From: Scilla litardierei
Taxonomy: Eukaryota; Streptophyta; Magnoliopsida; Asparagales; Asparagaceae
Direction: 5' to 3'
Length of the DNA stretch: 64,000 nucleotides
Assembly (NCBI GenBank): GCA_030789695.1
Contig: CM061142.1
Coordinates: 798,239,258-798,303,257, forward strand
Shown here: piece by piece, positions 13,536 to 39,905 of the stretch
Numbering within the stretch: position 1 is the first letter of the stretch
Layout: each line of letters opens with the position of its first letter
Notes under the pieces: generated by a model
Told to the model about the DNA's origin: nothing
Databases searched by the model: none
Seen by the model: only the letters and a program-made list of their open reading frames with translations
Translations under genes and position numbers: made by a program

Positions 13536-13540
13536 TATCG
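13536..13540. repeat. Target site duplication of element A, left
   Basis: TATCG, matching 25537-25541. Confidence 0.9.
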
Positions 13541-13835
13541 TGATCACTCCATATTTTACACCTTTTTTCTGTGTATTTGCATGCCATTTAGATCGCCCAA
13601 ATCATGTTTTTCACGATATATCGACGATATTGCGATGCTTTTCACGATTTGTTGTTTTTGTCGCATTTCAGGTGATTTGGCGCGATTTGGAGTGATCTCG
13701 AGACGCGCTTACTCTAGACGGCCACCGACGACCTCCCCGAGGGATATTTTGCTATTGGAGAGGAGCGGAAGAAGAATGGACGTCGCAGGAGCGACGAGGA
13801 GGCCAAAACAATCAGATTGGGCATCTTTTGTGTCC

Positions 13836-14217
13836 CACTCGGCCGAGTGGAGGAGCCACTCGGCCGACCAGCGAGACACTGCTCGGCCGACCCGTTCAGA
13901 CACGATTTCCATGTGTACTCGGCCGAGCGTCGGAGTCCACATCGGCCGAGTGACTATACCACGTCCGCCCGAGTGGCGCCCAGACGAAGCCCCTCCAAAA
14001 TATCGAAGTTTCTGTTTTTCGGCCACCTGAGCTTCAGAAGACCCACTCGGCCGAGTGGCAAACCACGTCCGCCCGAGTGCAGTGAAGCCATCGGCCGAGT
14101 GACGACAACTCACTCGGCCGAGCCGCCTCCGAACTGAAGACCCTTGAAGCCCCCGACTTACTGGAAAATGACAGGGTTTTCACTCGGCCGAGCGACTTTT
14201 GTCACTCAGCCGAGTGC
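13836..14217 (+). promoter_or_regulatory. Array of CACTCGGCCGAGTG palindromes in U3 of element A
   Basis: About nine copies of the CGGCCGA core, mostly inside the full or partial 14-bp palindrome, plus variants such as CGCCCGAG and CAGCCGAG, within 380 bp upstream of the putative TATA box at 14299. The spacing is irregular, so this is not a simple tandem repeat. Position and density suggest a binding site for a dimeric factor; that role is inferred. The 3' LTR carries the same array. Confidence 0.7.
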
Positions 14218-14298
14218 GATGCGCTGCCTGTAGCGAAATTTGCGGAAAACAGGCTGTGCAGGGGCGTTTTGGTCAGGATTTTTGGACGATTTTTGGGG

Positions 14299-14307
14299 CT
14301 ATTTAAG
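14299..14307 (+). promoter_or_regulatory. Putative LTR TATA box, element A
   Basis: CTATTTAAG in a GC-flanked context about 80 bp after the last palindrome. It marks the likely U3/R side of the LTR. Confidence 0.55.
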
Positions 14308-14697
14308 CCCTGTTTTTTACCCTAGTTTTGGGGAGCCATCTCTTAGATTTTTTGCAGCTTTTTGAGACTACTTTTTAGCTTTATTATTTGTGATTGGAGA
14401 AGAGGAAAAACTTGGATTTTTGTTGGATTATTTGAAGAACTACATTGGTTTGCATCTCTCTTCCCCAAAAACTCTATTTTTATTGTTTATATCATTGTTG
14501 TGATGAATTCCATTACCTATTTCATTGATTATTTTTGTGCTATTGCTATGATTTGTGAGTAGTCTCCACGTCTTGGGGCGTGGGGATGAACCCTACAAGC
14601 CCAATTTCGTATTTGTGATAAATTGGTAGAAATTGTGCTAGAATCAATAATTAGAGATTAGATTGGGATCGAATTACTACGGATAGCTAGGTATTCA

Positions 14698-15002
14698 TAT
14701 CAATTGGGATTTGCAAGAGATTGGATCCCAATTTGATAGGAAGCCCTAGAAATCCGAATTGGGTTGGAGTCGGACTTTCGAAGTATCGGTTTGCAAGAGA
14801 TTGGACCGATACTAGGATCTCCGGTTGCAATTCCGTGCCGATACCCGTTTGCAAGAGATTGGACGGGTAGGAACTATCCTAATTTAGATTGTGGACCGAG
14901 TTTGCAAGAGATTGGGCTCGGTGCGCAATTGGACGATGATGTTGATCCTAATGCTAGCTTTCCTAGGCTAGGGTTTGCAAGAGATTGGACCCGACCCTAG
15001 GA
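14698..15002 (+). repeat. Five stem-loops with a constant 14-nt loop and different stems (element A 5' LTR)
   Basis: The loop TTGCAAGAGATTGG starts at 14711, 14791, 14849, 14902 and 14975. Stems: AATTGGGAT/ATCCCAATT, AGTATCGGT/ACCGATACT, TACCCGT/ACGGGTA, ACCGAGT/GCTCGGT (one G-U pair), and a 14-bp stem 14961-14974 with 14989-15002 (12 of 14 paired). Loop identity with stem variation is not expected of ordinary tandem duplication. The array lies downstream of the TATA box, so it would be in the RNA leader, where packaging, dimerisation or translation signals of retroelements lie. Confidence 0.85.
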
Positions 15003-15367
15003 TAGCTATAGACCGGCAACAGCGCGAGAGCGTGAGCTTGGTTCCACATTTAGTTGCAACTAGTTCATCCAAATTCTCATTCTAGCAATTTTGATACCGA
15101 CGAACCACATTTATGAAATACGGTGAGTGGCGGGGATTCCCCATTCCCTAGACGTTCTTTATTTGATTTGATATTTCGCACATTTGTCTGACGATTGTGA
15201 CAGGATCGCCCAAGGCAATTCTCTCTATTCTTAAATAGCCAGGTTGATTAGGAGCAAGCACGGTCATTCTTCCTCCCTGTGTTCGATACCCGCTCGCCGC
15301 TATACCGTGCGCTTGCGGTAAAACTACAACCGTTCTTTGGGTGTACGTCCCGGAGCGATCAAGTTTT

Positions 15368-15385
15368 TGGCGCCGTTGCCGGGGA
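15368..15385 (+). other. tRNA-Asp primer-binding site of element A
   Basis: TGGCGCCGTTGCCGGGGA, six bases after the 5' LTR; complementary to the 3' end of plant tRNA-Asp. Confidence 0.92.
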
Positions 15386-15533
15386 GGCGATTACGTTTGA
15401 TTCTTTTTCACCCTAGCTACTTCTTTCTTTTATTTTTATTTTTTTTATTGTTACCATTATTATTTCCTTTACTATTCTTACCTAACCCTTCCACGGTATT
15501 AATCATTTCTTTGAAACTCTGTTTCCCCTGTGC

Positions 15534-16844
15534 ATGAACACGAGATCTACGGCGGACCCAGAAGACTTATTATTTGATCCCGAGATCGAACATACCGCGC
15601 GGAGACTTAGAGCGGAAAAGAGACAAGATCCGGAAGGGAGGTATATGACCAACCCGGAAACTCCTGAAGAATTGGCGGCAAGGATGGCAAGGATAATCTC
15701 TATTCGAGATAGGCTTCGGCCTAAGACTTCTTCTACCACCTCGTCCATTGCCATGCCAGGGTTGGCGGCTGACAAGAACTTCGAGCTAAAGACTGGATTG
15801 GTGGTTTTGATGCAACAAGACCCATTTCATGGGAACGCACATGAGAACCCCTACTACCACATCCAACTATTCTTGTCGAAGTGCGCCACATTCCAGATGC
15901 CGGGGGTCTCCAACGATGCTATCAGACTGCGTCTCTTCCCCTTTACGCTAAAGGACAAGGCACTCTATTGGTTGAGGACGCAAGCTGAGGGTGTCTTCAC
16001 CACTTGGGACGAGCTGGCGAGTGCATTTACTGACAAATTTTATCCGCCATCCAAGACGGTGAAGATCCGTAGCGCTCTCATGTCCTTCAAGCAAGGACCA
16101 CAGGAGACGCTCTATGAAGCATGGGAGCGTTTTAAGGATTTGCAGCATCAATGCCCGCACCACAGTATAGAGGATTGGGAGCTAGTTCATAGCTTCTACA
16201 ACGGTCTCCAACCGGGGACCAAACAAATTATTGATGCCGCGGCGAATGGTGCAATTTTGTCAAAGACTCCCGAGGAAGCTACGGCCCTAATTGAGGAGAT
16301 GGCCTCAAATAACCAACAATGGGGCGATGAGCGAGGACACTCCACATCCTCCTTAAAGCCAACTAGCATCTACGAGGCGAAGGCCGTAACGGAGCTCACG
16401 AGCAAATTCGATTCTCTCCACAAGGTGGTGGAGAGATTGGAGAAATTTATCACGGAGCCCCAAGGAAGCCCATCCACCTCCGCACCGACCAACCAAATGT
16501 GTGATTGGCAAGACCAATCTCAAGTCATGTACTCGGGAGGAGAGCAAGGAGAAGGATCCTTGGAGCAAGTACAATATGTTGCGGGGAACCAAGGGTATTG
16601 GTCCAATCCGGCCGCAAGAAATCATCCGGGATTCTCCTACGCCAACAATGAAGGAGCCTTGAACCCGCCACAACCACCGCCTCAACAAGCTCGACCACCA
16701 CCACCCCAACAACAAAACTATCCACCGAGGGGGCCTACTCAACAAAACTTTCAACCGAAGCAACAAGTTCCACCATATAGGCCTCCCGGATACAACCAAG
16801 GGTGGAGGAATCAAAATCAAAACCCTCCACAAGCTCCACAATGA
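15534..16844 (+). CDS. gag: Gag polyprotein of element A (436 aa to an in-frame UGA)
   Basis: Starts MNTRSTADPEDLL. The retrotransposon gag core lies at about residues 105-235 (LRLFPFTLKDKALYWL, FTDKFYPPSKTV, ETLYEAWERFKDL, LVHSFYNGLQPGTKQ), the capsid-like domain of plant Athila/Tat elements. A Gln/Pro-rich tail follows. No zinc knuckle is seen. The frame ends at a TGA (16842-16844), after which the same frame stays open into the protease-coding part with no other stop, so gag and protease were one ORF or are joined by stop suppression. The product would form the cytoplasmic virus-like particle. Confidence 0.88.
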   Translation: MNTRSTADPEDLLFDPEIEHTARRLRAEKRQDPEGRYMTNPETPEELAARMARIISIRDRLRPKTSSTTSSIAMPGLAADKNFELKTGLVVLMQQDPFHGNAHENPYYHIQLFLSKCATFQMPGVSNDAIRLRLFPFTLKDKALYWLRTQAEGVFTTWDELASAFTDKFYPPSKTVKIRSALMSFKQGPQETLYEAWERFKDLQHQCPHHSIEDWELVHSFYNGLQPGTKQIIDAAANGAILSKTPEEATALIEEMASNNQQWGDERGHSTSSLKPTSIYEAKAVTELTSKFDSLHKVVERLEKFITEPQGSPSTSAPTNQMCDWQDQSQVMYSGGEQGEGSLEQVQYVAGNQGYWSNPAARNHPGFSYANNEGALNPPQPPPQQARPPPPQQQNYPPRGPTQQNFQPKQQVPPYRPPGYNQGWRNQNQNPPQAPQ

Positions 16845-18308
16845 TCCGACTTCAAAACTAGAGTCGAGGCGTTCATGGTCGAGCAAAATAAGGTGAATGC
16901 TACTTTGAAGGCGGGGCAAGAATCTCTTAATACCGTAGTGGCTCAAATATCGGAGCAATTGGCGTTGCTCAATCGGAACACTCAAAGATTGCCGGCGCAA
17001 CCGGAGCAAAACCCACGGGGCAACACGGGCCACATCAATGCCGTAGTTGCCGTTACTACTAGAGGCGGGAAGGACACCACCCCCGCTATGATTCCTACCG
17101 AGGAGGCCGTGGAGGAAAGCTTGGAGCCGGTTGAGCTGGTAGTTGAGATTGAAAAGGAGAAGGAGCCACAAGACAAGGAGAAATCTAGGGCGGAGCGATT
17201 AATTGAGGAGAGGCGCTTCATGCCACCTGTCCCATTCCCCCAAAGACTAGCGAAAGCGAAAATGGAGAAAAGGCTAACGAAATTCCTCGAGTATCTAAGA
17301 GGAGTTAGCCTCAATATTCCCTTCCTCGACGCCATCGTGGAGATCCCCACGTATGCTAAATTCTTGAAGGACTTGATTTCGGGGAGGAAGAGGAAGGAGA
17401 AGATCATGCTAGCCGAGGAGGGCTCTTGGTTCACCAAGAGAGAGAAGGAGCCGGCAAAATTTAAAGATCCGGGGAGTTTTCGGATTCCTTGCACTTTGGG
17501 CGGCGTGCCTCTTCAAAAGGCGTTGGTCGATCTTGGGGCTAGTGTGAGTCTCATGCCCCTCTCCATGTTCTTAAAGCTTAACACCGGGACAAAGTTAAAA
17601 CCCACCGACATGCGCATTCAATTAGCCGATGGCCGGATAACAAGGCCGGTGGGGATTGCCGAAGACATCCCACTTCAAGTCCCGGGTGGAATATGCTTTC
17701 CATGTGACTTCGTCATCATGGACGTTAAGGAGGAGGGAGACACCTCATTGATACTTGGACGCCCATTCCTCGCCACCGCCGGAGTCATCGTCGACGTGCG
17801 CGAAGGTACCTTAACCTTAAACGTCAGAAACATCGAGGTGGAGCTCCACATTCCTAAGGCAATGAAGCACATGCCTTACCACGAGGAGCTTGATTACATG
17901 GACCTCCTCGATGAGGTGATAGAGGAGGCGATTCCTCACTCAATTGGCGCCCTTTTTGATGAAGAATTTGAAGAAGGCCCGGATTTAGGCCAAGATGAAA
18001 AGAGTGAAGACGATTCCCCCGACTTCTCCGCTGATGAAGATGAAGGCGACACTGATGTCGCAAGGATTCGAGAGCTCTGCAAGCTCTCGAAATTAAAGTC
18101 TCCAAAGAAAGCTCCGTCGGTACGGAAATCGGCATCGCCGGTTAAGCCGTTGACCGGGGCAAATGCTAGCTTGGGGGAGCCTCCCCCCAACACTATTCGA
18201 GACAAGAGACCTCCGAGGGAGGACGCTACGCCGCCACGTCCAAATCCAAGCGCGCTCCCCGGGAAGTTTGACGGGTGCATCTCATATGCACCAAACATCC
18301 CGCATTGA
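16845..18308 (+). CDS. Protease region of element A, in frame with gag
   Basis: Continuous frame from just after the gag UGA; the first internal Met is at 16875. Residues near 215-230 read ALVDLGASVSLMPLSMF, the aspartic protease active-site context of Athila-type elements, with D-L-G where many families have D-T-G or D-S-G. LILGRPFLATAG about 80 residues later is the second conserved block. The tail after about residue 335 (LLDEVIEEAIPHSIGAL, then VARIRELCKLSKLKSPKKAP) has a close counterpart in element B after the integrase domain, so in A the polymerase-integrase segment is missing with the frame kept. Confidence 0.85.
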   Translation, partial: SDFKTRVEAFMVEQNKVNATLKAGQESLNTVVAQISEQLALLNRNTQRLPAQPEQNPRGNTGHINAVVAVTTRGGKDTTPAMIPTEEAVEESLEPVELVVEIEKEKEPQDKEKSRAERLIEERRFMPPVPFPQRLAKAKMEKRLTKFLEYLRGVSLNIPFLDAIVEIPTYAKFLKDLISGRKRKEKIMLAEEGSWFTKREKEPAKFKDPGSFRIPCTLGGVPLQKALVDLGASVSLMPLSMFLKLNTGTKLKPTDMRIQLADGRITRPVGIAEDIPLQVPGGICFPCDFVIMDVKEEGDTSLILGRPFLATAGVIVDVREGTLTLNVRNIEVELHIPKAMKHMPYHEELDYMDLLDEVIEEAIPHSIGALFDEEFEEGPDLGQDEKSEDDSPDFSADEDEGDTDVARIRELCKLSKLKSPKKAPSVRKSASPVKPLTGANASLGEPPPNTIRDKRPPREDATPPRPNPSALPGKFDGCISYAPNIPH

Positions 18309-18323
18309 TTGAAAATTATAGGG

Positions 18324-18371
18324 GGTCGAGCTCACGACCTAAAACGAGCGCTTGTCGGGAGGCAACCCGAC
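18324..18371 (+). other. Two consecutive hairpins after the pol-type ORF (element A)
   Basis: GGTCG-agctca-CGACC (18324-18339) is followed by GTCGGG-aggcaa-CCCGAC (18354-18371). Both have six-nucleotide loops. Element B has both at the same place (33998-34045). The GGGAGGCAACCC part resembles a sequence I recall after pol in many Athila elements. Possible RNA signal between the two coding units. Confidence 0.65.
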
Positions 18372-18635
18372 GGTTTTTGCTTTATTTTTACTTTTTCTTT
18401 ATTTTCGTTTTAGAGATTTTTAGTGTTTTGAGTCATTCGACCAAAAATTTTGTGATAACGGGTCCTATTTTTCTTGACAGGAGAGGAGATAGGTAGATCC
18501 ATCATGAGGAGGATGAACGAGATGACGAGGAGCGCCCCAAGAAGGCGCTCGACGCTTAGGAGGAGGATGAAATCGACTGGAGGAAGAAAGACGGAGTTTA
18601 GAGCCCAAACGAAGACAAACAGCAGAACACAAGGC
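18372..18635 (+). other. Spacer between protease region and internal palindrome array, element A
   Basis: T-rich, then purine-rich sequence; no recognised frame. Confidence 0.4.
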
Positions 18636-18963
18636 TTACTCGGCCGAGTATACTAGTCACTCGGCCGAGTACACAAGTTCGTCCGGCCGAGCCGCTCACG
18701 AACGAGGGAAGTCTGCTGTACCCAACTCTCTGTTTATTTTCTTGATTTCGATATAACTGCTACTCGGCCGAGTATACATTATCACTCGGCCGAGTGAAAC
18801 GGATACCCTCCTAGGGCGAGTCATGCCGAGTAGCTTGAGTCACTCGGCCGAATGGACTTACGTCACTCGGCCGAGGCTGGCAAAGCCACTCGGCCGAAGC
18901 GATATCCGGGAGAAAATTTTTATTTGCCTCGCTCGGCCGAGTGATCACGTCACTCGGCCGAGT
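18636..18963 (+). promoter_or_regulatory. Internal CACTCGGCCGAGTG array of element A
   Basis: About ten CGGCCGA cores in about 330 bp, the same motif as in the LTR U3. The last copy (CACTCGGCCGAGTCGTA) ends about 12 bp before a TATA box at 18975. Together with the downstream intron and ORF start this looks like an internal promoter. Confidence 0.7.
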
Positions 18964-18974
18964 CGTAACTCTTT

Positions 18975-18984
18975 TATATATAAG
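18975..18984 (+). promoter_or_regulatory. Putative internal TATA box, element A
   Basis: TATATATAAG, between the internal palindrome array and the ORF1-like gene. Element B has CTATATAAG at the same relative place (33369-33377, minus). Confidence 0.65.
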
Positions 18985-19189
18985 TGGCGAGGGGGGGGCG
19001 CGGATTTCGAAATAGCAAATCCCAAATCCGCCCGCGCCCCCTCAGATCCCATCGCCCGATCTCGCTTCACCCAGCCCCCACTCGCCCGACCAAGCCCGCG
19101 CGCGTTGCCGCTCGGCCAGCCACCGCCGGCCGACCATCGCCGCACCCCGCCCGAGTCGCCGCCGGCGGCCTTGTCTCCGATCACCTCCG

Positions 19190-19352
19190 GTATAGCTTGA
19201 TTTGCCCGTTTTCTCCTCTTTTTGCGTAGTTTTCGAGGATCCGTGTATTAATCGAACCCCTAACCCGAATCAATTCCCATATCTATCTGTTATACCCCTA
19301 TCGCTCCATACATTTTGATTATTACTCGCTGATATCGCTTTTCCATTCGCAG
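19190..19352 (+). other. Putative 5'UTR intron of the internal transcript, element A
   Basis: TCACCTCCG|GTATAG at the 5' side and CCATTCGCAG|GTTG at the 3' side, 163 bp, T-rich between. Element B has a homologous donor (CACCTCG|GTTTAC) and acceptor (CTTTGCAG) at 33151-33000 although the sequence between has diverged. Confidence 0.6.
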
Positions 19353-19530
19353 GTTGCTTTTTGGAGCTTAGGGGAGCCTAGGGGAGCTTCTACGGGCTGT
19401 TTTGGACTTCGTGGAGGCGCGGACTTCGCACGCTTCCACTGCTTAGCACTCACGGCGTGTTTTGGTACACTCTTTCCATTCTTTTTGCACACGCCACACT
19501 TTTTCACTTTTCGGCGCGCTCGGGGCCGAT

Positions 19531-21737
19531 ATGCCGCCCCGGACACGGCCGCGGTCGACGAGAGCTTCCGCTAAGCGGAAGCGGTCGGACGAGCCCGGCC
19601 CCTCCCACTTGGTGGAGGACTCTCCTCCGCCTTCCCCCACACACGCTGTCCACCCAGCACAGCCTGCAGGCCCCGCACACCCCGCACAGCCTGCAGTGCA
19701 CCCACAGCCCGCACAGCCTCTCCCTGCCGATCCACAGCCACCACCACCGGCTCCACTGGTCGGGCCGCTCGGGATTACGTTCCGAGACGACGCACACCAC
19801 GCCGTCTTCGAGCGTATCTCCCAGCGCTCGATCGTACCCTCCAGGTTTGCACACCTCGCTGACCTAGGACGCCTGGGGGTACTTGAGGGGATGCTCACGT
19901 TGTACGACAACGTGGGCTGGCGAGATTTTTTCCAGGTGTCGGCGGATACTTTTACCCGCCCGACACTTGAGGTTTTGAGTTCGATCGCCCGGACCGATGA
20001 GGGATGCTCATTCAGGTTCATGGATCGAGAGTGCCAGGTCACTCTCGATATGATGAGAGCGTTCTTCTCATGGCCCGCAGTCCCCGGAGCCGATCGCGGT
20101 TACGGCCCCACACATATCCCTCCACCCTCTTTCGACGCCGGTGCCTTCTGGGCACGTATCACAGGCCACCACGCCGCCTTTGACCCTAGTAGGGCCAAGG
20201 CCTCGGCCATTGTCCACCCCTGCCTACGTATTGCCCAACGCCTTATGGCGACCACCTTTTTGGCCAGATATGAGCCGGGCACGATGTCTACGCCAGAGCT
20301 CTACATGCTCTATGCGATGACACGTCCCAGAGCTCTATCTAGGGATGGACACGAGCTTGTCCCCGCCGTCGTGATCGACATTGCGGCTTGGTTTTTAGAC
20401 CGTATCATTGTGTCGGTGGGCGCTCGCTCACTGATATGCTGCGGCGGTCTGATCACCCTGCTTACCATGATGACCGGCGAGGACTTACCTGACGACCTGC
20501 GATGCGTTCCGGGCCCCACTTCCTTGTCGATAGACGTTATGGCCCGGATGTAGATGCTGCGTTCGCATGGTGAGCGTCACTGGGTCTGGTTGCACGGCCC
20601 TTTCGGTGCCGACTACATGATTCTCCCGAGCCCAGCTCGGACCCAGATTGCACCGGCCCATGTTGACTGGCTCCCAGCGATGGATGTCCTCATCCCCGCT
20701 GCGTACGTGCTCGAGGCCGAGGAGGCCGAGCAGGCCCACGCTGCCCACGCTGCCCAGGCTGCTCCCGCAGACCCTGCTGCACACCTTGCCGAGCCTGCTG
20801 CCGACCCCGTCGACCCTGTGGCCCCTCAGCCTGTTCCTGACGTTTCCGCTGCTCCTGACACTTCTGTCCCCACCTCTGTCAGTGTCGAGAGTACTTTTGC
20901 TGAGCCCACTTCCACCACTGTCACCACTTCCGAGGCTGTCCCCACCACTCCCGCTGCCACCTCTGGCCCTCTGTCCGTGGAGCCTCTTTGCTCCGCACTC
21001 CCCGAGCGCCCGCCGACCTTTGTCGAGAGTGGAGCGTCCTCGTTTGCCGCGGTCGTGGAGACCATGGCTAGCATGATCTCCGCTGGGATTGCACCTTTTG
21101 GTCCACACAGTTCCGCCCCAGCGGTGAGTCCTCTGTCTCCACAGCCGCCGTATTCTCCGAGAGCGTCGTGGCGTCTGTCCACACTTCTGGGCCACTGACC
21201 TCTCTTGCCACCTCGTTGCCACTTTTGCACGCTTCCTTTGCTGCCGCTGCCTCTACTTCTCACTAGCCGGTGTCCCAGCCTCACACTGAGGCCAGGCCCA
21301 CATTTGCTGGCGCGGCACCTCTTGTCCCCTTCCCTGCTGAGCCCGTTACATACTCCACTCGCGTACGCCAGCCCCGCCCTGCGCAGCCTAGACCGGTGCG
21401 TCCCTCTGCACCACCCCCGCCCGACACTGTACTGCAGAGCATACGTGCTCTTGAGTTGGCGGTGAGTGGTCTTAGAGGTGACCTTAGGACCCTGTCCTCC
21501 ACCGTCTCTACGATGGCTGGACGCTTTGACCTGATCCCTCAGATCCACTACTGCCTGACACAGATCTTAGAGCGTCTTCCGCGCGTACCCCCACCCACCC
21601 AGCAGGTTCCCACACACACTTCCATACACACTAGACCTGCTTCCACTTCCACGCCCACCCCAGCTCAGCAGCGTACACCACCACCACCACCACCTCCGCC
21701 TCAGGACGGAGACGGCGCAGCACCACCTTCCTAGGCA
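19531..21737 (+). pseudogene. ORF1-like gene of element A in the env position (one nonsense codon, one frameshift)
   Basis: I place the start at 19531 (MPPRTRPRSTRASAKRKR) because element B has the same start context; an earlier in-frame ATG at 19462 is not conserved. A KRKR nuclear-localisation-like motif lies near residue 18. Residues about 85-335 resemble the Athila ORF-1 / plant transposon protein domain (FERISQRSIVPSRFAHLADLG, FRFMDRECQVTLDMM, PSRAKASAIVHPCLRIAQRL). An Ala/Ser/Thr/Pro-rich region and a coiled-coil-like segment (LQSIRALELAVSGLRGDL) follow. A TAG at 20551-20553 and a single-base loss near 21130 interrupt it. No signal peptide or membrane segment is seen, so an envelope role is not supported. 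Function unknown. Confidence 0.75.
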
Positions 21738-22839
21738 CCCTTGATGCCATCGATTCCTTTTGCCGTTGTGCTGCCCGTTTCTGCTGGGTCCTGATGCCTT
21801 TTTGTCCACCCCCCTCCCCTCACTTATTTTGGGATTCTCATTTGCCGTATCTTTATATATCTTTTTTGGGAGAGAGGGAGAGCTTTTGGTGACCCATTTA
21901 TACTCGTATCACTCATATCTGTGCATGCATCATATCCGCATCATATTTTCATTTCTTTATTTTTCGTTTTATTATCTTTTTCTTTCCATCATGCATGCAC
22001 CCTCACTTGCCCCTCTCATTACTTGTCTCTCTGTGTGCCACACTTTGCACATTGAGGACACTGTGCGGTTTAGCTTGGGGGGGTGAGTTCTCACGTTCTT
22101 TTTCGATTTGCCATCTTTATTTTTAGTTTTTCACACCGTTTTTTTTCACTTTTGCACTCATTTTTCTTTATTTTTCTTTTATTTTGCCATGCATCACGTT
22201 TTTCTTATTTCTCTGTGTGCCGCATTGCATAGTTTTATTTTTCTTATCTTTATTTCTTTCCTTTTTCATCTCATGCTAGAGATGAATTTTCTGTGATGAT
22301 GTCTACGTGGAGTTAGCTTATTCTATATGCATGCTATATTTGTCATGTCTTAGATTTTATTTCTGATATCACATGCTATGACTTGCTTTGCATTTAGAAA
22401 TAGTAACCCACACTTTTTCCACATGAAAATGGATGAAGTTTTATTATTAGCTGAGCCTGAATATTCATATGTATGCTATCACAGAAAACACACCAAGATT
22501 CACGCATTGAATGCCTATATCTGGAGTACTGATTTCTTTTCCTATATCACTTCTATATGCATGAATTGTACACTTCACTTCGGGATGATTGAATGATGTT
22601 AGCTATGATATATCTGGATTAGTTAGCTTTTTTGTGATCAAAACTGAGTAAATTAGATTACCCTGCCGAAGTTGTCGTGCATGTCTTACAGAGTGAACCG
22701 AGAGTTATATATATTTCTTTCTCCACAAATCTTGAACATCATTTCTCTACTTTTAAAAATCATTGGTGAATCTCCCCTTAGTGATTCTATTTTATGGCAT
22801 TTCGCCCGCTATTAATTCCTAGCTCCAAATCCCTTCTTC

Positions 22840-22890
<51 letters not shown>

Positions 22891-23700
22891 AAAGAGAGAA
22901 AAACATTCTTGTATATCATTATCTCTCTCTGAGTTGGGATCATTGTGTATATATTGCTTATAAAAAAAGAGAAAAAAAAAGAGAAAAGAGGAAAAATCCT
23001 CAATAAAAGATCCCATCTCACTTTCTTTCTTTCTTCTTTCTCTTCTTTGCTTTTGGAGCTATATAAAAATGGGGATGTAAATATTTTTGTGCCACCACGC
23101 TTATAGATAAGCTTGGGGGAGGGGACCCATTGATGTGTGAGAGAGTGACTACTTGACATTGCACGACAACCTAGGCTAAGTAATATTCTATACTCGGTGA
23201 GATTGTTTCTAGCTTCACGAAATCCAGAAATCTAAGCCTAGCATTCATTTCATGAAATCCAAACTTTTCTATTCTCTCTATTCTATAGTGTGATACTCTT
23301 ATATTCCAGATAGAAAGCGTTCAATTGAAAAGTGTGTGATCTGTGATTTGTATACCGCTTTAAATGATTCAGGCAATGTTAATTTTAAAATCATTCCGTT
23401 CTTCATGATTATATCATTGTTCGTGGGTTTTCTATTTCTATTTGCACTATTATACTATGATATCAAAATAAGATTCTTTGACATGTATTTCTCATTCGGT
23501 GCATGCTATAAGAGTAAGTGAAACCCACGTCCTGAGAAAATGATCTAGCACCCTACCTCTTCGCTTCTTTCTTTCGTCTTTATTTTCATTTGGTTTTTCA
23601 TTCTTCTTCGTTTTTCATTTTTTTCGTTTTTCGCCGTTTTCGTTTTCCGAATCCACCGGGTTCGCATTTTACTTATCTTCCTCGAGGACGAGTAAGAGGC
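21738..23700 (+). other. Long 3' non-coding region of element A
   Basis: Contains two early hairpin-plus-polypurine modules: CACATTG-agga-CACTGTG then TTTAGCTTGGGGGGG (about 22048-22082), and GCTTAT-AG-ATAAGC then TTGGGGGAGGGG (about 23098-23122). An (AT)n microsatellite lies at 22842-22888. Element B has the matching region at 28890-30655. No coding frame. Confidence 0.7.
22842..22888. repeat. (AT)n microsatellite
   Basis: About 23 uninterrupted AT units inside the 3' non-coding region of element A; the corresponding place in element B is not expanded. Confidence 0.9.
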
Positions 23701-23715
23701 AAGCTTGGGGGATTT
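23701..23715 (+). other. Polypurine tract of element A
   Basis: AAGCTTGGGGGATTTT-type tract abutting the 3' LTR, preceded by a short hairpin (CTCG-agga-CGAG). Confidence 0.8.
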
Positions 23716-25536
23716 TGATCACTCCATATTTTACACCTTTTTTCCGTGTATTTGCATGCCATTTAGATCGCCCAAATCATGTTTTTCACGATATATCGAC
23801 GATATTGCGATGCTTTTCACGATTTGTTGTTTTTGTCGCATTTCAGGTGATTTGGCGCGATTTGGAGTGATCTCGAGACGCGCTTACTCTAGACGGCCAC
23901 CGACGACCTCCCCGAGGGATATTTTGCTGTTGGAGAGGAGCGGAAGAAGAATGGACGTCGCAGGAGCGACGAGGAGGCCAAAACAATCAGATTGGGCATC
24001 TTTTGTGTCCCACTCGGCCGAGTGGAGGAGCCACTCGGCCGACCAGCGAGACACTGCTCGGCCGACCCGTTCAGACACGATTTCCATGTGTACTCGGCCG
24101 AGCGTCGGAGTCCACATCGGCCGAGTGACTATACCACGTCCGCCCGAGTGGCGCCCAGACGAAGCCCCTCCAAAATATCGAAGTTTCTGTTTTTCGGCCA
24201 CCTGAGCTTCAGAAGACCCACTCGGCCGAGTGGCAAACCACGTCCGCCCGAGTGCAGTGAAGCCATCGGCCGAGTGACGACAACTCACTCGGCCGAGCCG
24301 CCTCCGAACTGAAGACCCTTGAAGCCCCCGACTTACTGGAAAATGACAGGGTTTTCACTCGGCCGAGCGACTTTTGTCACTCGGCCGAGTGCGATGCGCT
24401 GCCTGTAGCGAAATTTGCGGAATACAGGCTGTGCAGGGGAGTTTTGGTCAGGATTTTTGGACGATTTTTGGGGCTATTTAAGCCCTGTTGTTTACCCTAG
24501 TTTTAGGGAGCCATCTCTTAGATTTTTTGCAGCTTTTTGAGACTACTTTTTAGCTTTATTATTTGTGATTGGAGAAGAGGAAAAACTTGGATTTTTGTTG
24601 GATTAATTGAAGAACTACATTGGTTTGCATCTCTCTTCCCCAAAAACTCTATTTTTATTGTTTATATCATTGTTGTGATGAATTCCATTGCCTATTTCAT
24701 TGATTATTTTTGTGCTATTGCTATGATTTGTGAGTAGTCTCCACGTCTTGGGGCGTGGGGATGAACTCTACAAGCCCAATTTCGTATTTGTGATAAATTG
24801 GTAGAAATTGTGCTAGAATCAATAATTAGAGATTAGATTGGGATCGAATTACTACGGATAGCTAGGTATTCATATCAATTGGGATTTGCAAGAGATTGGA
24901 TCCCAATTTGATAGGAAGCCCTAGAAATCCGAATTGGGTTGGAGTCGGACTTTCGAAGTATCGGTTTGCAAGAGATTGGACCGATACTAGGATCTCCGGT
25001 TGCAATTCCGTGCCGATACCCGTTTGCAAGAGATTGGACGGGTAGGAACTATCCTAATTTAGATTGTGGACCGAGTTTGCAAGAGATTGGGCTCGGTGCG
25101 CAATTGGACGATGATGTTGATCCTAATGCTAGCTTTCCTAGGCTAGGGTTTGTAAGAGATTGGACCCGACCCTAGGATAGCTATAGACCGGCAACAGCGC
25201 GAGATCGTGAGCTTGGTTCCACATTTAGTTGCAACTAGTTCATCCAAATTCTCATTCTAGCAATTTTGATACCGACGAACCACATTTATGAAATACGGTG
25301 AGTGGCGGGGATTCCCCATTCCCTAGACGTTCTTTATTTGATTTGATATTTTGCACATTTGTCTGACGATTGTGACAGGATCGCCCAAGGCAATTCTCTC
25401 TATTCTTAAATAGCCAGGTTGATTAGGAGCAAGCACGGTCATTCGTCCTCCCTGTGTTCGATACCCGCTCGCCGCTATACCGTGCGCTTGCGGTAAAACT
25501 ACAACCGTTCTTTGGGTGCACGTCCCGGAGCGATCA
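23716..25536 (+). repeat. 3' LTR of element A
   Basis: 1821 bp, same ends as the 5' copy. Palindrome array about 24011-24392, TATA about 24474-24482, hairpin array 24873-25177. One hairpin loop has a C-to-T change (TTGTAAGAGATTGG). Confidence 0.92.
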
Positions 25537-25541
25537 TATCG
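25537..25541. repeat. Target site duplication of element A, right
   Basis: TATCG, matching 13536-13540. Confidence 0.9.
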
Positions 25542-27009: not shown

Positions 27010-28846
27010 TGATCGGATGCCCGAGGTGCGCGAACACGCAACCGGGGCACGCGACTCGCTAGTCTTACAGCAAGCGCACAGTGTAGCGGCGAGCGGGTAT
27101 CGAACACGAGGAGGCCAAATGACAGTGTCTTCTTCAACTCACCTGGCTATAAGAACAGTCTAGAAATATTCGCTATAAAGCGGTCACAGTCGTTCAATTG
27201 TATAAAAAGAAATATCAGATTAATAAAGATGCATAGGGGTAGGGAATCCCCGCTACAAACCGTGTCTCGTCATTGTGATTCGTAGGTGTCACAATTGCTG
27301 ACTTGAAATTTAGGTGAACTAGTTGCAACTAAATGTAGAACCAAGCTCACGCTCTCGCGCTATTGTCGGTCTATAGCAAACCTAGGGTAGGGTCCAATCT
27401 CTTGCAAACCCTAACCTAGGCAAGCTAGCGTGAAGGACAACATCATCGTTCAATCGCATCTCGAGCCCACTCTCGTGCAAACTCGAGCTACGACCTAGGT
27501 TGGGATAGTTCCTACCCGTCCAATCTCTTGCAAACGGGTATTGGTATAGAATTGCAATCGAAAACACTAGTTTCGGTCCAATCTCTTGCAAACTGATTCC
27601 GGAGAAATCCAATTGTAACCCAATTCGAATATCTAGGGCTTCCTATCGAGTTGGGATCCAATCTCTTGCAAATCCCAATCGGTATGAATCCCTAGTTATT
27701 CGTATTAAATCAATCCCAAACTAACCCTAATCAATTCTAACAATAATTTCACCAATTCATCACAAATTAGAAATAGGGTTCGTAGGGTTCATCCCTACGC
27801 CATAAGACGACAAAACTACTCACAATTCATAATGAAATTCAACAGAAATTCACAAATAAAATCAATAGAATTCTTAGCAATATTCAATATATCAATAAAA
27901 ATGGAGTTTTTGATAGGGAGAGAGACAAACCAATGAAGAACCAATAGCATCCAACAAAATAACACTTTTCTCTCCCCCCCTAAAAGCTCAATCTAATCTC
28001 CTAAAAAGTAAGCTAAAAAAGGCTGCAAAAAGTTCTGAAAAAGCTTTCTAAACTAGGTTAAAAACTGGGGTTAAATACCCCCCAAAACGCCCAAAAAACT
28101 GTGACAAAAATGCACATGCACAGCCTCAAAATCGCAGTTTACGCTACAGGCAGCACGACTCACTCGGCCGAGTGACAAATGTCATTTGGCCAAGTGACAA
28201 ATGTCATTCGGCCGAGTGACAAACCCTGACAATTCCAGTAAGTTCGGACTTTTGGGGGTCGGCTCCTCGGGAGTCACTCGGCCGAGTGACTTTCTTTGCT
28301 TCGGCCGAGGGGACTTCTTCACTCGGCCGAGTCGGAACTTGGGAAACGACTGTAAAATTACAGTAAGTCTGGACTTTTTCATTGCTGTCGTCTTGATGCT
28401 ACTCGGGCGAGTGGGGTCTCCGTGGTTCGGCCGAGTGGGCTGGCGATGCTCGGCCGAGTGCACGCTGATACTCAGTCTGTTGCGTGTCCGATCTAGTCGG
28501 CCGAGCGGGCTCTCGATGTTCGGCCGAGTGACTCCTTCACTCGGCCGAGTGACATGCTGAAACTGCCCAATCTTCGTATTTTTGCTCCCTCGTCGCTCCT
28601 ACGACGTTCTTTCTTCTTCCACTCCTCTCCAATAGCAAAATTCCCCTCGGGAGAGTCACGGGTGATGTCCCGGAGTGGGTGCATATCAGAATCACTCCAA
28701 ATCGCTCGAAATCTCCTGAAATTCGACAAAAACAAGAAATCGTGAAAAGCATCGCAATATTGCCGAAAAATCGTGAAAAGCGCGATTCGAGCGATCAAAA
28801 TGGCATGCAAACATGCAGAAAAAAGGTGTAAAATATGGAGTGATCA
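27010..28846 (-). repeat. 3' LTR of element B
   Basis: Minus strand starts TGATCACTCCATATTTTACACC, closely matching element A, and ends GCATCCGATCA. It contains the palindrome array (about 28160-28555), a TATA-like GGGTATTTAA (28071-28080, minus) and five hairpins (27381-27679). A 22-bp local duplication near 28178-28221 explains most of the length difference from the other LTR. Confidence 0.9.
27381..27679 (-). repeat. Five stem-loops with a constant 14-nt loop (element B 3' LTR)
   Basis: On the plus strand the loop appears as CCAATCTCTTGCAA at 27394, 27520, about 27578 and 27658, and as variant CCACTCTCGTGCAA at 27467. Stems include CCTAGGGTAGGGT/ACCCTAACCTAGG (12 of 13), CTCGAG/CTCGAG, TACCCGT/ACGGGTA and TTGGGAT/ATCCCAA. 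Order and spacing match element A in LTR orientation; the fourth stem differs from A at two base pairs, with both sides changed. Confidence 0.85.
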
Positions 28847-28861
28847 AAATCCCCCAAGCTT
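28847..28861 (-). other. Polypurine tract of element B
   Basis: Minus strand AGCTTGGGGGATTT next to the 3' LTR, preceded by the hairpin CTCG-agga-CGAG as in element A. Confidence 0.8.
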
Positions 28862-32830: not shown

Positions 32831-32999
32831 GTGTGCCGCGAGTGCTCACCCAATAAAAATGTAATGCAGTGTGCTTAATAAAAGGAGCGAGTGTACCTGA
32901 ACATGCCACGAGAGCAAATCAGCGAGTGTGTATGAAGAGCGCTGCCTCCGCGAAGCCAAAAATGCGTCCTGAAGCTCCCCTAAGCTCCCCCAAGATAGC

Positions 33000-33151
33000 C
33001 TGCAAAGCAAACAACAATATCAGCGGGTAATATTCAAAATACATGGGGGAGATGGGGTATAATAGATAGATAAACAATTTAATTTGATTTTTGGGCTCAA
33101 CGGGTCTACGGATCGAGAAAAATAGGAGAAAACCGGCGTTTGGGGGTAAAC
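33000..33151 (-). other. Putative 5'UTR intron of the internal transcript, element B
   Basis: Minus strand CACCTCG|GTTTAC ... GCTTTGCAG|GCTATC, 152 bp, homologous in position to the intron of element A. Confidence 0.6.
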
Positions 33152-33368: not shown

Positions 33369-33377
33369 CTTATATAG
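33369..33377 (-). promoter_or_regulatory. Putative internal TATA box, element B
   Basis: Minus strand CTATATAAG, between the palindrome array and the ORF1-like gene. Confidence 0.6.
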
Positions 33378-33390
33378 GTGTAGATACGAC

Positions 33391-34825: not shown

Positions 34826-35406
34826 TCACCTCACCGCCGCACTCTTATAGTCATAATTGAGTGTCTTGATGGCCCAATACGCGCGGTGCTCCAACTCTAC
34901 CGGTAGGTGACAAGCTTTCCCATAAACAAGTCGGAACGGTGTGGTGCCAATCGGAGTGCGAAAGGCCGTGCGATATGCCCATAGAGCATCGTTTAACTTC
35001 ATGGACCAATCTTTTCTAGATCGATCTATAGTCTTTTCAAGAATTTGCTTGATTTCTCTATTTGAAACTTCCACTTGTCCGCTCGTCTGACGGTGGTAGG
35101 CCATGCCAATTCTATGGTTTACCCCGTACTTTTTCAACATGGCTTCAAATTTGTTTTCTATAAAGTGACTTCCCCCGTCACTTATCAAAGTACGGGGCAC
35201 CCCAAAGCGCGGGAAAATATTCTGCTTGAAAAACTTGGAGACAACCCTCGCATCATTGGTAGGGTGGCGATGGCTTCTACCCATTTGGAGACGTAGTCCA
35301 CGGCCAATAAGATGTACTTGTTACCCTTGCTTGATGGAAATGGTCCCATGAAGTCCACTCCCCAACAATCAAAGAGCTCAATCTCTAGAATGGGCCTCAT
35401 TGGCAT
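34826..35406 (-). pseudogene. Integrase catalytic core (element B), one frameshift
   Basis: 35406-35185 holds [12 protein letters not shown] (first catalytic Asp); 35284-34826 holds LISDGGSHF (second Asp) and [15 protein letters not shown] (catalytic Glu). The spacing fits a DD35E core. A frameshift near 35280 joins the two overlapping frames. Confidence 0.85.
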
Positions 35407-35412
35407 CTCATT

Positions 35413-36729
35413 TCATTTGGAAATATTCCCGGTCCGTTGGCATCTATCGCACCCCTTGACGAAGTCGTGCGTGTCTTTGAACATTGTTGGCCAAAAGAAT
35501 CCACTCTGCAATATCTTAGCGATAGTCTTAGATGCGGCGTGATGTCCCCCGCATGGCATACCGTGGCAATGCAAGATGATGGAGGTGGCCTCCTCCTTAG
35601 AAATACATCTCCGAATAACCCCATCCTTGCATATCTTAAAGAGATACGGATCTTCCCAAAAATAGCTACGGACCTCATGCATAAATCTTCTCCTTTGCTG
35701 TGTGGGCATCCCGCATGGTTTAATCCCACAAGCCAAGTAGTTTACAAAGTCCACATACCAAGGAACTTCCCTGGGCCTTACAGCGTATAGCCTCTCATCA
35801 ACAAAGGAGTCATCGATGGGCAAACTTTCGTCCTCCTTGTCACGAATAAGCCTAGACAAATGATCCGCCACATCGTTGTCTGTACCCTTCTTATCTCTGA
35901 TTTCTAAATCAAACTCTTGCAATAGAAGTATCCACCTAATCAACCTAGGTTTGGCCTCTTTCTTGTTTAGAAGATACTTCAATGCCGCATGGTCGGTGTG
36001 GACAATTACCTTTGATCCAAGGAGATAGGAGCAGAACTTTTCAATGGAATACACGACCGCTAGAAGCTCTTTCTCCATAGTTGTATAATTTTTCTGTGCG
36101 TCATCCAATGTTTTGCTTGCATAGAATATTGCATGAAGCTTTCTGTCTTTCCTTTGTCCTAACACCGCTCTAATGGCTTGGTCACTTGCATCACTCATGA
36201 GCTCAAAGGGAAGGCTCCAATCCGGTGGTTGTATGATGGGCGTAGAAATTAGTGCTTCTTTCAATGTGTTGAATACCCGCAAGCATTCTCTTGAAAAAAC
36301 AAATGGAGCATCTTTAGCAAGCAAGGAGATAAGGGGCCGGGCAATCAAGGCGAAATCCTTGATAAAGCGGCGGTAAAACCCCGCATGACCAAGAAAGCCC
36401 CTAATGCCCTTAACATTAATAGGAGGAGGGAGTTTCTCGATTACCTCAATCTTTGCCTTATCAACCTCAATCCCTCTTGAGGAGACAAGGTGCACAAGAA
36501 CTATCCCTTCGGTGACCATGAAATGACATTTCTCCCAATTAAGAGTAAGATTATTTTGTTGACATCTTTTAAGATCTTTGGTAAGATTAGCCAAACAAGA
36601 ATCAAACTCACTTCCATAAACTGAGAAATCATCCATGAAAACTTCCATAATATTTTCAATATAGTCGAAAAAGATGGAGGTCATGCACCTCTGAAAGGTG
36701 GCGGGTGCATTACAAAGACCAAAGGGCAT
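35413..36729 (-). CDS. pol: Reverse transcriptase C-terminal half, RNase H and integrase zinc domain (element B)
   Basis: 438 residues. [16 protein letters not shown] opens the palm; the catalytic pair is in FMDDFSVYG near residue 32. RNase H acidic residues are all present ([23 protein letters not shown]) at about residues 190-300. The integrase HHCC zinc domain follows ([11 protein letters not shown] ... CDRCQRTGN). Domain residues look intact, so decay affects the frame more than the active sites. Together these enzymes copy the RNA to DNA and prepare integration. The frame ends just before the integrase core. Confidence 0.88.
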
Positions 36730-37170
36730 TCTACGGTAGGCGTAAGTGCCTTAAGGACAAGTAAAAGTAGTCTTTTCTTGGTCGTCTTCATGCAAAGGGA
36801 TTTGGAAAAACCCCGAATACCCTTCCAAGTAGCAAAAGTATTTATGTTTAGCAAGCCGTTCAAGCATTTGATCTATGAAGGGTAGTTGGTAATGGTCTTT
36901 TCGGGTGGCTTTATTTAGTTTTCGATAATCAATTCACATCCGCCATCCCGTGACAGTGCATGTAGAAATGAGCTCTCCTTTTTCATTTTTTATAACGGTC
37001 ATCCCCCCTTTCTTGGGGACGACGTGAACGGGGCTAACCCATCTACTGTCTGAGATTGGATAAATAATGCCGGCCTCAAGCAATTTAAGGATGTCCTTTT
37101 TGACTACCTCTTTCATATTCGGGTTCAACCGCCTTTGAGGCTCAATAGAAGTGGCTTCAGTGTTTTCCAA
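36681..37170 (-). pseudogene. Reverse transcriptase, N-terminal half (element B)
   Basis: 37170-36934 reads QRRLNPNMKEVVKKDILKLL, then AGIIYPISDSRWVSPVHVVPKKGG, the fingers region of gypsy reverse transcriptase in Athila form. The palm start near 36800 is partly readable in another frame (GYSGFFQIPLHEDDQEKTTFTCP). Frameshifts separate it from the C-terminal half at 36729. Confidence 0.8.
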
Positions 37171-38088: not shown

Positions 38089-39905
38089 TGATCGGATGCC
38101 CGAGGTGCGCGAACACGCAACCGGGGCACGCGACTCGCTAGTCTTACCGCAAGTGCACGGTGTAGCGGCGAGCGGGTATCGAACACGAGGAGGCCAAATG
38201 ATAGTGTCTTCTTCAACTCACCTGGCTATAAGAACAGTCTAGAAATATTCGCTATAAAGCGGTCACAGTCGTTCAATTGTATAAAAAGAAATATCAGATT
38301 AATAAAGACGCCTAGGGGTAGGGAATCCTCGCTACAAACCGTGTCTTGTCATTGTGATTCGTAGGTGTCACAATTGCTAGACTTGAAATTCAGGTGAACT
38401 AGTTGCAACTAAATGTAGAACCAAGCTCACTCTCTCGCGCTATTGCCGGTCTATAGCAAACCTAGGGTAGGGTCCAATCTCTTGCAAACCCTAACCTAGG
38501 CAAGCTAGTGTGAAGGACAACATCATCGTTCAATCGCATCTCGAGCCCACTCTCGTGCAAACTCGAGCTACGACCTAGGTTGGGATAGTTCCTACCCGTC
38601 CAATCTCTTGCAAACGGGTATTGGTATAGAATTGCAATCGAAAACCCTAGTTTCAGTCAAATCTCTTCCAAACCGATTCCGGAGAAATCCAATTGTAACC
38701 CAATTCGAATATCTAGGGCTTCCTATCGAGTTGGGATCCAATCTCTTGCAAATCCCAATCGGTATGAATCCCTAGCTATTCGTATTAAATCAATCCCAAA
38801 CTAACCCTAATCAATTCTAACAATAATTTCACCCATTCATCACAAATTAGAGATAGGGTTCGTAGGGTTCATCCCTACGCCATAAGACGGTAAAACTACT
38901 CATAATTCATAATGAAATTCAATAGAGATTCACAAATAAAATCAATAGAATTCATAGCAATATTCATTATATCAATAAAAATGGAGTTTTTGATAGGGAG
39001 AGAGACAAACCAATGAAGAACCAATAACATCAAACAAAATAACACTTTTCTCTCCCCCCCTAAAAGCTCAATCTAATCTCCTAAAAAGTAACCTAAAAAA
39101 GGCTGCAAAAAGTTCTGAAAAAGCTCTCTAAACTAGGTTAAAAACTGGGGTTAAATACCCCCAAAAACGCCCAAAAAACTGTGACGAAAATGCCCATGCG
39201 TAGCCTCAAAATCGCAGTTTACGCTACAGGCAGCGCGGCTCACTCGGCCGAGTGACAAATTTCATTCGGTCGAGTGACAAACCCTGACAAATTCCACTAA
39301 GTTCAGACTTTTGGGGGTTGGCTCCTCGGGAGTCACTCGGTCGAGTGACTTTCTTTGCTTCGGCCGAGGGGACTTCTTCACTCGGCTGAGTCGGAACTCG
39401 GGAAACGACTGTAAAATTATAGTAAGTCTGGACTTTTTCATTGCCATCGTCTTGATGCCACTCGGGCGAGTGGGGTCTCCGTGGTTCGGCCGAGTGGGCT
39501 GGCGATGCTCAGCCGAGTGCACGCTGATACTCAGTCTGTTGCATGTCCGATCTGGTCGGCCGAGCGGGCTCTCGATGTTCGGCCGAGTGACTCCTTCACT
39601 CGGCCGAGTGACATGCTGAAAATGCCCAATCTTCGTATTTTTGCTCCCTCGTCGCTCATACGACGTTCTTTCTTCTTCCACTCATCTCCAATAGCAAAAT
39701 TCCTCTCGGGAGAGTCACGGGTGACGTCCTGGAGTGGGTGCATATCAGAATCACTCCAAATCGCTCGAAATCTCCTGAAATTCGACAAAAACAAGAAATC
39801 GTGAAAAGCATCGCAATATTGCCGAAAAATCGTGAAAAGCGCGATTCGAGCGATCAAAATGGCATGCAAACATGTAGAAAAAAGGTGTAAAATATAGAGT
39901 GATCA
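38089..39905 (-). repeat. 5' LTR of element B
   Basis: 1817 bp, same ends. Palindrome array about 39240-39612, TATA-like tract 39151-39160 (minus), hairpin array about 38461-38760. Its second hairpin loop is mutated. Confidence 0.9.

What the first reader, a model, noticed from the sequence alone, without database searches (positions are those of the whole stretch)
14698..15002. LTR stem-loop array with an invariant 14-nt loop and different, fully paired stems
Element A carries five stem-loops in 300 bp. The loop TTGCAAGAGATTGG is identical in all five, while each stem has its own sequence: 9 bp perfect, 9 bp perfect, 7 bp perfect, 7 bp with a G-U pair, and a 14-bp stem with 12 pairs. Duplication of one hairpin would give similar stems; here only the loop is kept and pairing is kept. 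That points to selection on structure and loop sequence, in a part of the LTR that should be in the RNA leader. I know of no described element with this design. Packaging, dimerisation, a protein-binding platform or translation control are possible roles (inference).
Basis: partly seen in the sequence, partly recalled or inferred. Interest (0 to 1): 0.9.

Follow-up and report, generated by a model that had tools for sequence, protein, structure and literature searches.

The report
Five-hairpin RNA array in plant retrotransposons
A very common plant jumping gene carries, near the start of its RNA, five hairpins that share one small frozen tip but have different stems kept paired by matching mutations, which makes it a strong candidate for the tag by which these elements are recognised for copying.

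Summary
Confirmed and strengthened. All five loops are exact at the stated places. The same array sits in all four LTRs of two Athila-type Ty3/Gypsy elements in the window and in all 50 arrays aligned from the host genome, which holds 167,774 exact copies of the 14-mer. Hairpins are longer than reported (34-77 nt), and the '14-nt loop' probably folds itself (U·G, UG bulge, CAA/UUG, GAGA tetraloop). A structure taken only from the window fits 95.7% of pair cells in the 50 arrays. Of 54 arrays, 18 pairs have common states differing on both sides (re-pairing control mean 5.3, maximum 12 of 2,000). Drift between LTR mates hits cap and stems equally (2.3%), yet between lineages the cap stays at 2.9% while stems reach 20.9%: fold and cap are selected, in the sense RNA. 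Four gag-bearing, one pol-bearing and four coding-poor elements all keep it, so it acts in cis. Best explanation: a multivalent recognition platform for packaging or co-mobilisation (about 0.5); no binding data. Kissing-loop dimerisation, miRNA precursor and chance are disfavoured. Weak point: for the CAC cap variant, energy favours another register of the tip. No Rfam match; my literature searches found no description.

The parts
13541..15361 (+). 5' LTR of element A (Athila-type Ty3/Gypsy); TSD TATCG at 13536-13540 and 25537-25541
   Evidence: 99.2% identical to 23716-25536; ends and TSD read, checked
14680..14756 (+). Hairpin 1 (cap 14711-14724)
   Evidence: outer-stem pairs kept 97.5% on average over 54 arrays
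14761..14833 (+). Hairpin 2 (cap 14791-14804)
   Evidence: TCGGT/ACCGA to TTGGT/ACCAA covariation; kept 93.1%
14838..14871 (+). Hairpin 3 (cap 14849-14862)
   Evidence: CCC/GGG to TTC/GAA in the related group
14887..14930 (+). Hairpin 4 (cap 14902-14915)
   Evidence: five pairs with double changes in 34 rows, the cap pair A-U to C-G among them
14955..15008 (+). Hairpin 5 (cap 14975-14988)
   Evidence: cap CAA/UUG to CAC/GUG in another set of elements. RNAalifold gave this cap another register, which I replaced by the common one
15021..15038 (+). Further GAGA tetraloop hairpin just 3' of the array (AGCGC-GAGA-GCGUGAGCU)
   Evidence: closing-pair probability 0.81 in the leader fold; aligned
14299..14306 (+). 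TATA-like box, inferred start of the leader about 400 nt upstream of hairpin 1
   Evidence: TATTTAA also in element B; inference, no transcript data
15368..15385 (+). Primer binding site next to the LTR
   Evidence: sequence read; type recognised from memory
15534..16844 (+). Gag ORF of element A, no CCHC zinc knuckle
   Evidence: PF03732 1.7e-20; no strict CCHC match in either element
16875..18308 (+). Protease-containing ORF of element A
   Evidence: PF13650 2.8e-06
23716..25536 (+). 3' LTR of element A; array copy with hairpins 24855-25183
27010..28846 (-). 3' LTR of element B; array copy with hairpins 27702-27374
38089..39905 (-). 5' LTR of element B; array copy with hairpins 38782-38454
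34829..36750 (-). RT-RNaseH-integrase region of element B; no match to A's gag or protease domain in B
   Evidence: RVT_1, RT_RNaseH, Integrase_H2C2; rve 1.3e-07, 32.3 bits, just under its cut-off 32.6; tblastn of A's gag and protease ORFs on B hits only the C-terminal part, residues 347-485, of the latter

Best explanation
The array is a cis-acting RNA element in the 5' leader of a large Athila-type retrotransposon group. Five independently folding hairpins present the same small cap five times; its most likely fold is a U·G pair, an unpaired UG, three base pairs and a GAGA tetraloop. Supported here: the cap sequence and the pairing of each stem are under purifying selection in the sense RNA, while stem sequence is free as long as it pairs. 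Inferred: the cap is a protein-recognition motif, five copies give avidity, and different stems keep the hairpins from mispairing. Most likely step: binding by the shared Gag (or a Gag-linked host factor) that selects these RNAs for packaging and reverse transcription, so that gag-bearing, pol-bearing and coding-poor members are mobilised by a common pool of proteins.
For: Covariation: structure from the window only, tested on 30 genome arrays, gives 96.0% paired cells and 20 double-changed pairs against re-pairing means of 88.1% and 10.8, 0 of 2,000 reaching; with 50 arrays 95.7% and 22 pairs; common states in 54 rows 18 double-sided against mean 5.3. Cap: 100 of 100 listed genome places of TTGCABGAGANTGG (of 36,203 matches) keep a standard pair at positions 6/11, 94 of them C-G. 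Selection, not mutation: mates 2.3% in cap and in stems, far lineages 2.9% against 20.9%. Sense strand: common G·U states in 32 pairs, common A·C in 4, against 29 and 17 in drift. Cis role: 4 of 4 short elements lack gag, protease and RT matches and keep the array; four elements with gag and protease but no RT match, and element B with RT but no gag, share it. Background: most Arabidopsis Athila elements lack pol and seem mobilised in trans (PMC2410132, passages), which needs a shared cis signal.
Against: No binding, packaging or expression data. The cap fold is not settled by energy: isolated hairpins with the CAA cap show it in 161 of 172 cases, but 51 of 53 with the CAC cap prefer another register (four pairs, 6-nt loop; -14.5 against -13.4 kcal/mol on the stem of B hairpin 4), and of 269 caps overall 165 show the full standard cap. 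Gag has no CCHC zinc knuckle, so a classical nucleocapsid-psi contact is not expected. The array lies in the LTR, about 360 nt upstream of the PBS, so it could equally serve reverse transcription, export, stability or translation. Short elements carry ORFs of their own, so a translation role is not excluded. Seven of 44 variable pairs have a common non-pairing state, and one control measure (variable pairs that always pair, 37) is reached in 13 of 2,000 re-pairings.
Confidence: 0.5

Rival explanations
1. Translation or export platform: the hairpins recruit a host factor that lets the long structured leader be exported or translated (as in pararetrovirus leaders).
For: Predicted leader of about 1.2 kb with seven upstream ATGs; plant pararetrovirus leaders recruit export factors (PMC12786077, passage); short elements still have ORFs that could need it.
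Against: Elements with gag, with pol, or with neither keep the same array, although their first ORFs differ.
Confidence: 0.22
2. Dimerisation site: the palindrome UUGCAA in each loop forms kissing contacts between two RNAs.
For: UUGCAA is a 6-nt palindrome present five times.
Against: Its CAA pairs with UUG in the predicted cap. The common variant TTGCACGAGAGTGG breaks the palindrome: 42 hairpin-4 caps and 11 hairpin-5 caps among 269.
Confidence: 0.06
3. Binding platform used by the host (silencing or RNA-decay factor) or by the element against it, not for packaging.
For: Multivalent caps suit any RNA-binding protein; 167,774 exact cap copies persist.
Against: A host-imposed recognition site should be lost, not kept under selection; a counter-defence decoy remains possible. 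No direct evidence.
Confidence: 0.15
4. No RNA function: pairing is maintained by palindrome-correcting template switching or recent duplication, or is chance.
For: Quasi-palindromes can be corrected by template switching (recalled); LTR mates show one double change.
Against: LTR mates mostly break pairs (1 double, 28 one-sided, 41 broken of 70 changed pairs); invariant U·G pairs stay uncorrected; the cap is frozen without being a mutational cold spot; arms of different hairpins share only 1-5 of 9 positions.
Confidence: 0.03

Closest known systems
Dispersed RNA packaging signals of RNA viruses (MS2, STNV, parechovirus, HBV)
   Same: Several stem-loops share a short recognition motif; in MS2 the motif is an apical loop plus a 5' bulge (PMC6281560, passages); HBV signals carry RGAG in their loops (PMC7612645, abstract start in listing).
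   Different: Here five copies are clustered in about 330 nt of an LTR leader, with a nearly invariant cap; protein binding is unproven; the host element is a plant retrotransposon.
Retroviral psi and leader hairpins (HIV-1, MLV, MMTV)
   Same: Structured hairpins in the leader upstream of gag, GNRA-type loops among them (recalled); a purine loop is critical for MMTV encapsidation (PMC8096270, title and abstract start in listings).
   Different: Retroviral leader hairpins have different loops; no identical five-fold array is known to me (recalled). This Gag lacks zinc knuckles.
Transferrin-receptor mRNA with five iron-responsive elements (recalled, no call)
   Same: Five hairpins with invariant loop and different stems form a protein platform.
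   Different: Different motif, 3' UTR of a host gene, known protein partner.
Athila retrotransposons, including pol-less families (PMC2410132, passages)
   Same: Host element belongs here: ATHILA ORF hit and Ty3-type Gag and RT; pol-less, gag-keeping members.
   Different: The passages read describe no leader hairpins or packaging signal; 'Athila' with 'packaging signal' gave 0 papers.

Membership tests
Athila lineage of Ty3/Gypsy LTR retrotransposons | LTRs with TSD, Ty3-type Gag, RT, integrase | tested here: met
   LTR pairs and 5-bp TSDs; Gag in A, RT-RNaseH in B, integrase core in B just under its curated cut-off. Neither element in the window has all genes.
Athila lineage of Ty3/Gypsy LTR retrotransposons | ATHILA ORF | tested here: met
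   PF03078 8.2e-10 at 19462-20550; B has ORFs that match the same stretch of L178 as A's ATHILA ORF does (tblastn)
Retroelement packaging signal (psi) | Conserved structured RNA in the leader upstream of gag | tested here: inconclusive
   Structure and conservation met; that it is in the transcript rests on a TATA-like box only
Retroelement packaging signal (psi) | Kept in elements that must be mobilised in trans | tested here: met
   4 of 4 short elements without gag/PR/RT matches keep it; that they are mobilised by A- or B-like helpers is inferred
Retroelement packaging signal (psi) | Bound by Gag; needed for and able to confer packaging | not testable with these tools
   needs protein and RNA experiments
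Retroviral dimer initiation site (kissing loop) | Palindrome kept in an unpaired apical loop | tested here: not met
   CAA of UUGCAA is paired in the predicted cap; palindrome broken in common variants
miRNA/siRNA hairpin precursor | Stem arm sequence conserved, loop free | tested here: not met
   Opposite pattern: cap 2.9%, stems 20.9% between lineages
Known Rfam family | Match above gathering score | tested here: not met
   No hit in the array; best sub-threshold hit CRISPR-DR36 16.3 bits against 38
Packaging-signal-mediated assembly (RNA viruses) | Multiple stem-loops sharing a coat-protein recognition motif | tested here: inconclusive
   Shared motif on different stems met; protein contact not testable

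The most novel reading that the evidence does not exclude
The five-hairpin array is the shared identity tag of a split retrotransposon system. Gag and protease sit on one kind of element, RT and integrase on another, and coding-poor elements ride along; all are packaged into common particles because the same frozen RNA cap is displayed five times in each leader.
Probability: 0.28. Interest if true: 0.92.

Novelty: new variant of a known kind. Interest (0 to 1): 0.8.

Why it matters
What RNA feature plant LTR retrotransposons use to select their own transcripts is largely open as far as I know. The passages of the 2025 review that I read (PMC12786077) describe RNA pools but no defined packaging signal, and in the BARE paper PMC3735527 the phrase 'packaging signal' does not occur. 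Here is a compact, strongly supported RNA element with a 14-nt cap, present in an inferred 30,000 or more LTR copies (167,774 exact caps, at most five per array) and shared by elements with different coding content. It makes the question directly testable with short RNAs and one protein. It also gives a new covariance-model target for annotation and a way to trace which non-autonomous elements belong to which helper.

Tried and rejected
Kissing-loop dimerisation, miRNA precursor, DNA-only palindrome, chance and simple duplication were considered and rejected or ranked low (see rivals). Rfam gave nothing in the array. Literature: exact 14-mer 0 papers, 12-mer 2, unrelated by title; Athila with stem-loop 7 papers, passages of two read; passages of PMC3601003, PMC3735527, PMC12786077, PMC2410132 and PMC6281560; no whole paper was read; other searches were seen as listings.

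Limits and results against. The 50 aligned genome arrays come from about the first 3.1 Mb of contig C1, and each was found by at least one intact cap (14-mer or its variant), so cap conservation is biased upward; the mate comparison shares this bias. Two further arrays that were fetched (in L180 and L181) were not aligned or counted. The consensus structure was derived from the window elements, so tests on the window itself are partly circular, and I changed its hairpin-5 cap to the common register; one search uses structures from one element alone, one search uses rows not involved in deriving the structure. Relatedness was handled by re-pairing controls and LTR mates, not by a tree model; the cap change CAA/UUG to CAC/GUG counts as at least two events (hairpins 4 and 5), not as 53. 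The measure 'further pair types' did not exceed its shuffles (491 of 500 as high). Folding z-scores in 150-nt windows do not single out the array. In B3's own minimum-energy fold hairpin 2 is missing and hairpin 4 takes the other cap register. Mates (16 pairs) were assumed from distance and identity above 0.9; none of the 16 was dropped. Counts of gag and RT in the genome could not be obtained (tool busy), so whether autonomous elements exist is unknown; pol-bearing elements rest on B alone. The plant species was not identified.

Full report
What is there. The five copies of TTGCAAGAGATTGG lie exactly where reported, inside the 5' LTR of a 12-kb element (A, 13541-25536, + strand) with LTRs 99.2% identical and TSD TATCG. 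A second element (B, - strand, 27010-39905, TSD ATGGG) has the same array in both LTRs, about 82-84% identical to A there. Gag (PF03732), protease and an ATHILA ORF (PF03078) are found in A, RT-RNaseH and integrase domains in B (the integrase core scores just under its cut-off), so the host is an Athila-type Ty3/Gypsy retrotransposon, hence a plant genome.

The fold. RNA folding of A's array gives z = -7.5, of B's -4.7. In the whole predicted leader of A (14325-15533) the minimum-energy fold still contains all five hairpins, with closing-pair probabilities of the caps 0.56-0.62. In A the 14 nt fold into a cap: U1·G14, unpaired U2 G3, C4-G13, A5-U12, A6-U11, loop GAGA. A sixth GAGA hairpin follows at 15021-15038. 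Against uniqueness: 150-nt windows of U3 fold as strongly (z to -5.4) and the array's antisense strand reaches -4.2. In B3 the minimum-energy fold lacks hairpin 2 and gives hairpin 4 another cap register.

Not chance. Cognate arms pair best among all 120 permutations in each of four LTRs. 118 unrelated occurrences of the 14-mer have at most 5 contiguous flank pairs. A covariance model of the hairpin finds the 20 hairpins of the four LTRs (42 bits or more; 12 of them built the model); the next hit in the window has 12.5 bits.

Covariation between A and B. On 105 hairpin pairs, A5 against B3 shows 8 double changes that keep pairing, 8 one-sided changes that keep it, 2 broken and 87 unchanged; random placement of the same substitutions gives 1.04 doubles on average, 0 of 20,000 reaching 8. 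With structure from A alone (112 pairs) the counts are 8, 7, 9 and 88, again 0 of 20,000.

Genome copies. The host genome (3.68 Gb) has 84,400 + 83,374 exact 14-mers; the reversed control has 1 + 4. Spacing in the listed places is close to that of the window. I aligned 30 arrays and then 20 more; the first 30 are 74% to 97% identical to A. All 50 align to the five-hairpin array; of 54 arrays with the window's four, 51 keep at least 80% of outer stem pairs in all five hairpins and 3 in four. For the 30, pairing is 96.0% with 20 double-changed pairs, beyond every one of 2,000 re-pairings that keep relatedness and column make-up. The tool's own count on 34 rows gives 96.4% and 22 pairs, 0 of 500 shuffles; slid structures reach 50.4% at most; the measure 'further pair types' is not exceptional. 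Counting only states present in at least four rows of 54, 37 of 44 variable pairs always pair (re-pairing mean 31.2, 13 of 2,000 reach it), 7 have a common non-pairing state (mean 25.7, none as low) and 18 have double-sided changes (mean 5.3, none as high).

The cap. TTGCAC-GAGA-GTGG is common in hairpin 4 (42 caps) and occurs in hairpin 5 (11 caps) among 269; at positions 6/11 the 269 caps read A-U 205, C-G 57, U·G 4, G·U 2 and A·C 1. In the genome, TTGCABGAGANTGG has 36,203 matches; of the first 100 listed, 94 are CAC/GTG, 4 CAT/GTG and 2 CAG/TTG, so all 100 keep a standard pair (the listed places are from the first 7.2 Mb of one contig). Energy does not settle the fold of the variant: folded alone, CAA caps take the standard cap in 161 of 172 cases, CAC caps take another register in 51 of 53, by about 1.1 kcal/mol on the stem tested. 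The pattern at 6/11 speaks for the standard cap, since among the 269 caps G at 11 never goes with A at 6; but it rests on few independent events.

Selection rather than mutation. LTR mates diverge only after insertion. Over 16 mate pairs, cap positions differ at 22/960 and stems at 62/2702, both 2.3%, linkers at 26/1517, 1.7%. Over 854 distant pairs the values are 2.9%, 20.9% and 30.7% (the cap figure leaves out positions 6 and 11, which stand at 18.7%). Mates break pairs more often than not (41 of 70 changed pairs, one double change). Common G·U states occur in 32 pairs and common A·C in 4, while drift makes 29 and 17. So the sense RNA is what is selected, with the caveat that the structure was itself predicted on the sense strand.

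Who carries it. Four short elements (LTR spacing 5.0-5.8 kb; L173, L175, L176, L177) have no gag, protease or RT match to A or B (at E up to 1 two stray fragments of 13 and 19 residues). In two of them I scanned the acidic ORFs, without Pfam match; part of them is related to a leader ORF of B. They carry the array with compensatory changes such as CCC/GGG to TTC/GAA in hairpin 3. Elements A, L178/179, L182/183 and L235 (4.5 kb of it read) have gag and protease and no match to B's RT and integrase; B has RT and integrase, and A's gag and protease ORFs match it only in a C-terminal stretch outside the protease domain. Arabidopsis Athila families are likewise often pol-less but keep selected gag, and seem to be mobilised in trans (PMC2410132, passages). 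A shared cis signal is what such a system needs.

Function. The pattern (frozen cap on different stems, in several copies, kept in cis by elements of different coding content) fits a multivalent recognition platform, most probably for packaging. The MS2 operator has the layout of apical loop plus 5' bulge (PMC6281560, passages). This is an analogy; no binding was tested, and the Gag has no CCHC knuckle (none of the 120 listed of 1,972 Gag relatives shows PF00098).

Novelty. No Rfam family matches the array. Searches of the open-access literature for the sequence and for combinations of Athila, LTR retrotransposon, stem-loop, leader, packaging and covariation found no description in what I saw of them. 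Subscription papers and preprints were not searched.

A recheck added: the other cap register for the CAC form, the direct gag/protease/RT comparison, and the integrase score.

Noticed in passing
window 13541-25536 and 27010-39905; L173, L175-L179, L182, L183, L235: Gag-protease and RT-integrase appear on different elements that share LTR and array (four against one sampled); four short relatives have neither. Possible split or complementing retrotransposon system; genome-wide census not obtained.
   Followed up: partly
window 13834-14217: U3 carries repeated copies (seven in the longest family found) of a palindromic motif around ACTCGGCCGAGT, also present in element B; possibly a repeated DNA-binding site in the promoter region.
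   Followed up: no
window 16065-16168, - strand: Rfam snoR71 (RF00097) scores 46.8, above its threshold of 40, antisense to the gag ORF; perhaps a family model that overlaps retrotransposon sequence.
   Followed up: no
window 15021-15038: A further hairpin with a GAGA tetraloop follows the array, with GC-rich stem and no UG bulge.
   Followed up: partly
L122 4510-5605, - strand: LTR-like leader in a contig filed under Blastococcus endophyticus holds five TCCACTTGGA hairpin motifs with partly different stems, within a region with a 232-bp tandem duplication; may be an independent hairpin array of similar design.
   Followed up: partly
L121 and L122: Two small contigs in bacterial genome assemblies (Streptomyces clavifer, Blastococcus endophyticus) look like plant Athila/Tat-type LTR sequence, probably contamination.
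   Followed up: no
L173 2866-4464 and L176 2568-3972: Acidic ORFs without Pfam match in the short elements, one stretch related to a leader ORF of element B upstream of RT.
   Followed up: partly
L173 8446-9901: Second LTR of a short element is followed by a primer-site-like sequence and the 3' part of an A-type element, which suggests a recombinant or tandem element.
   Followed up: no
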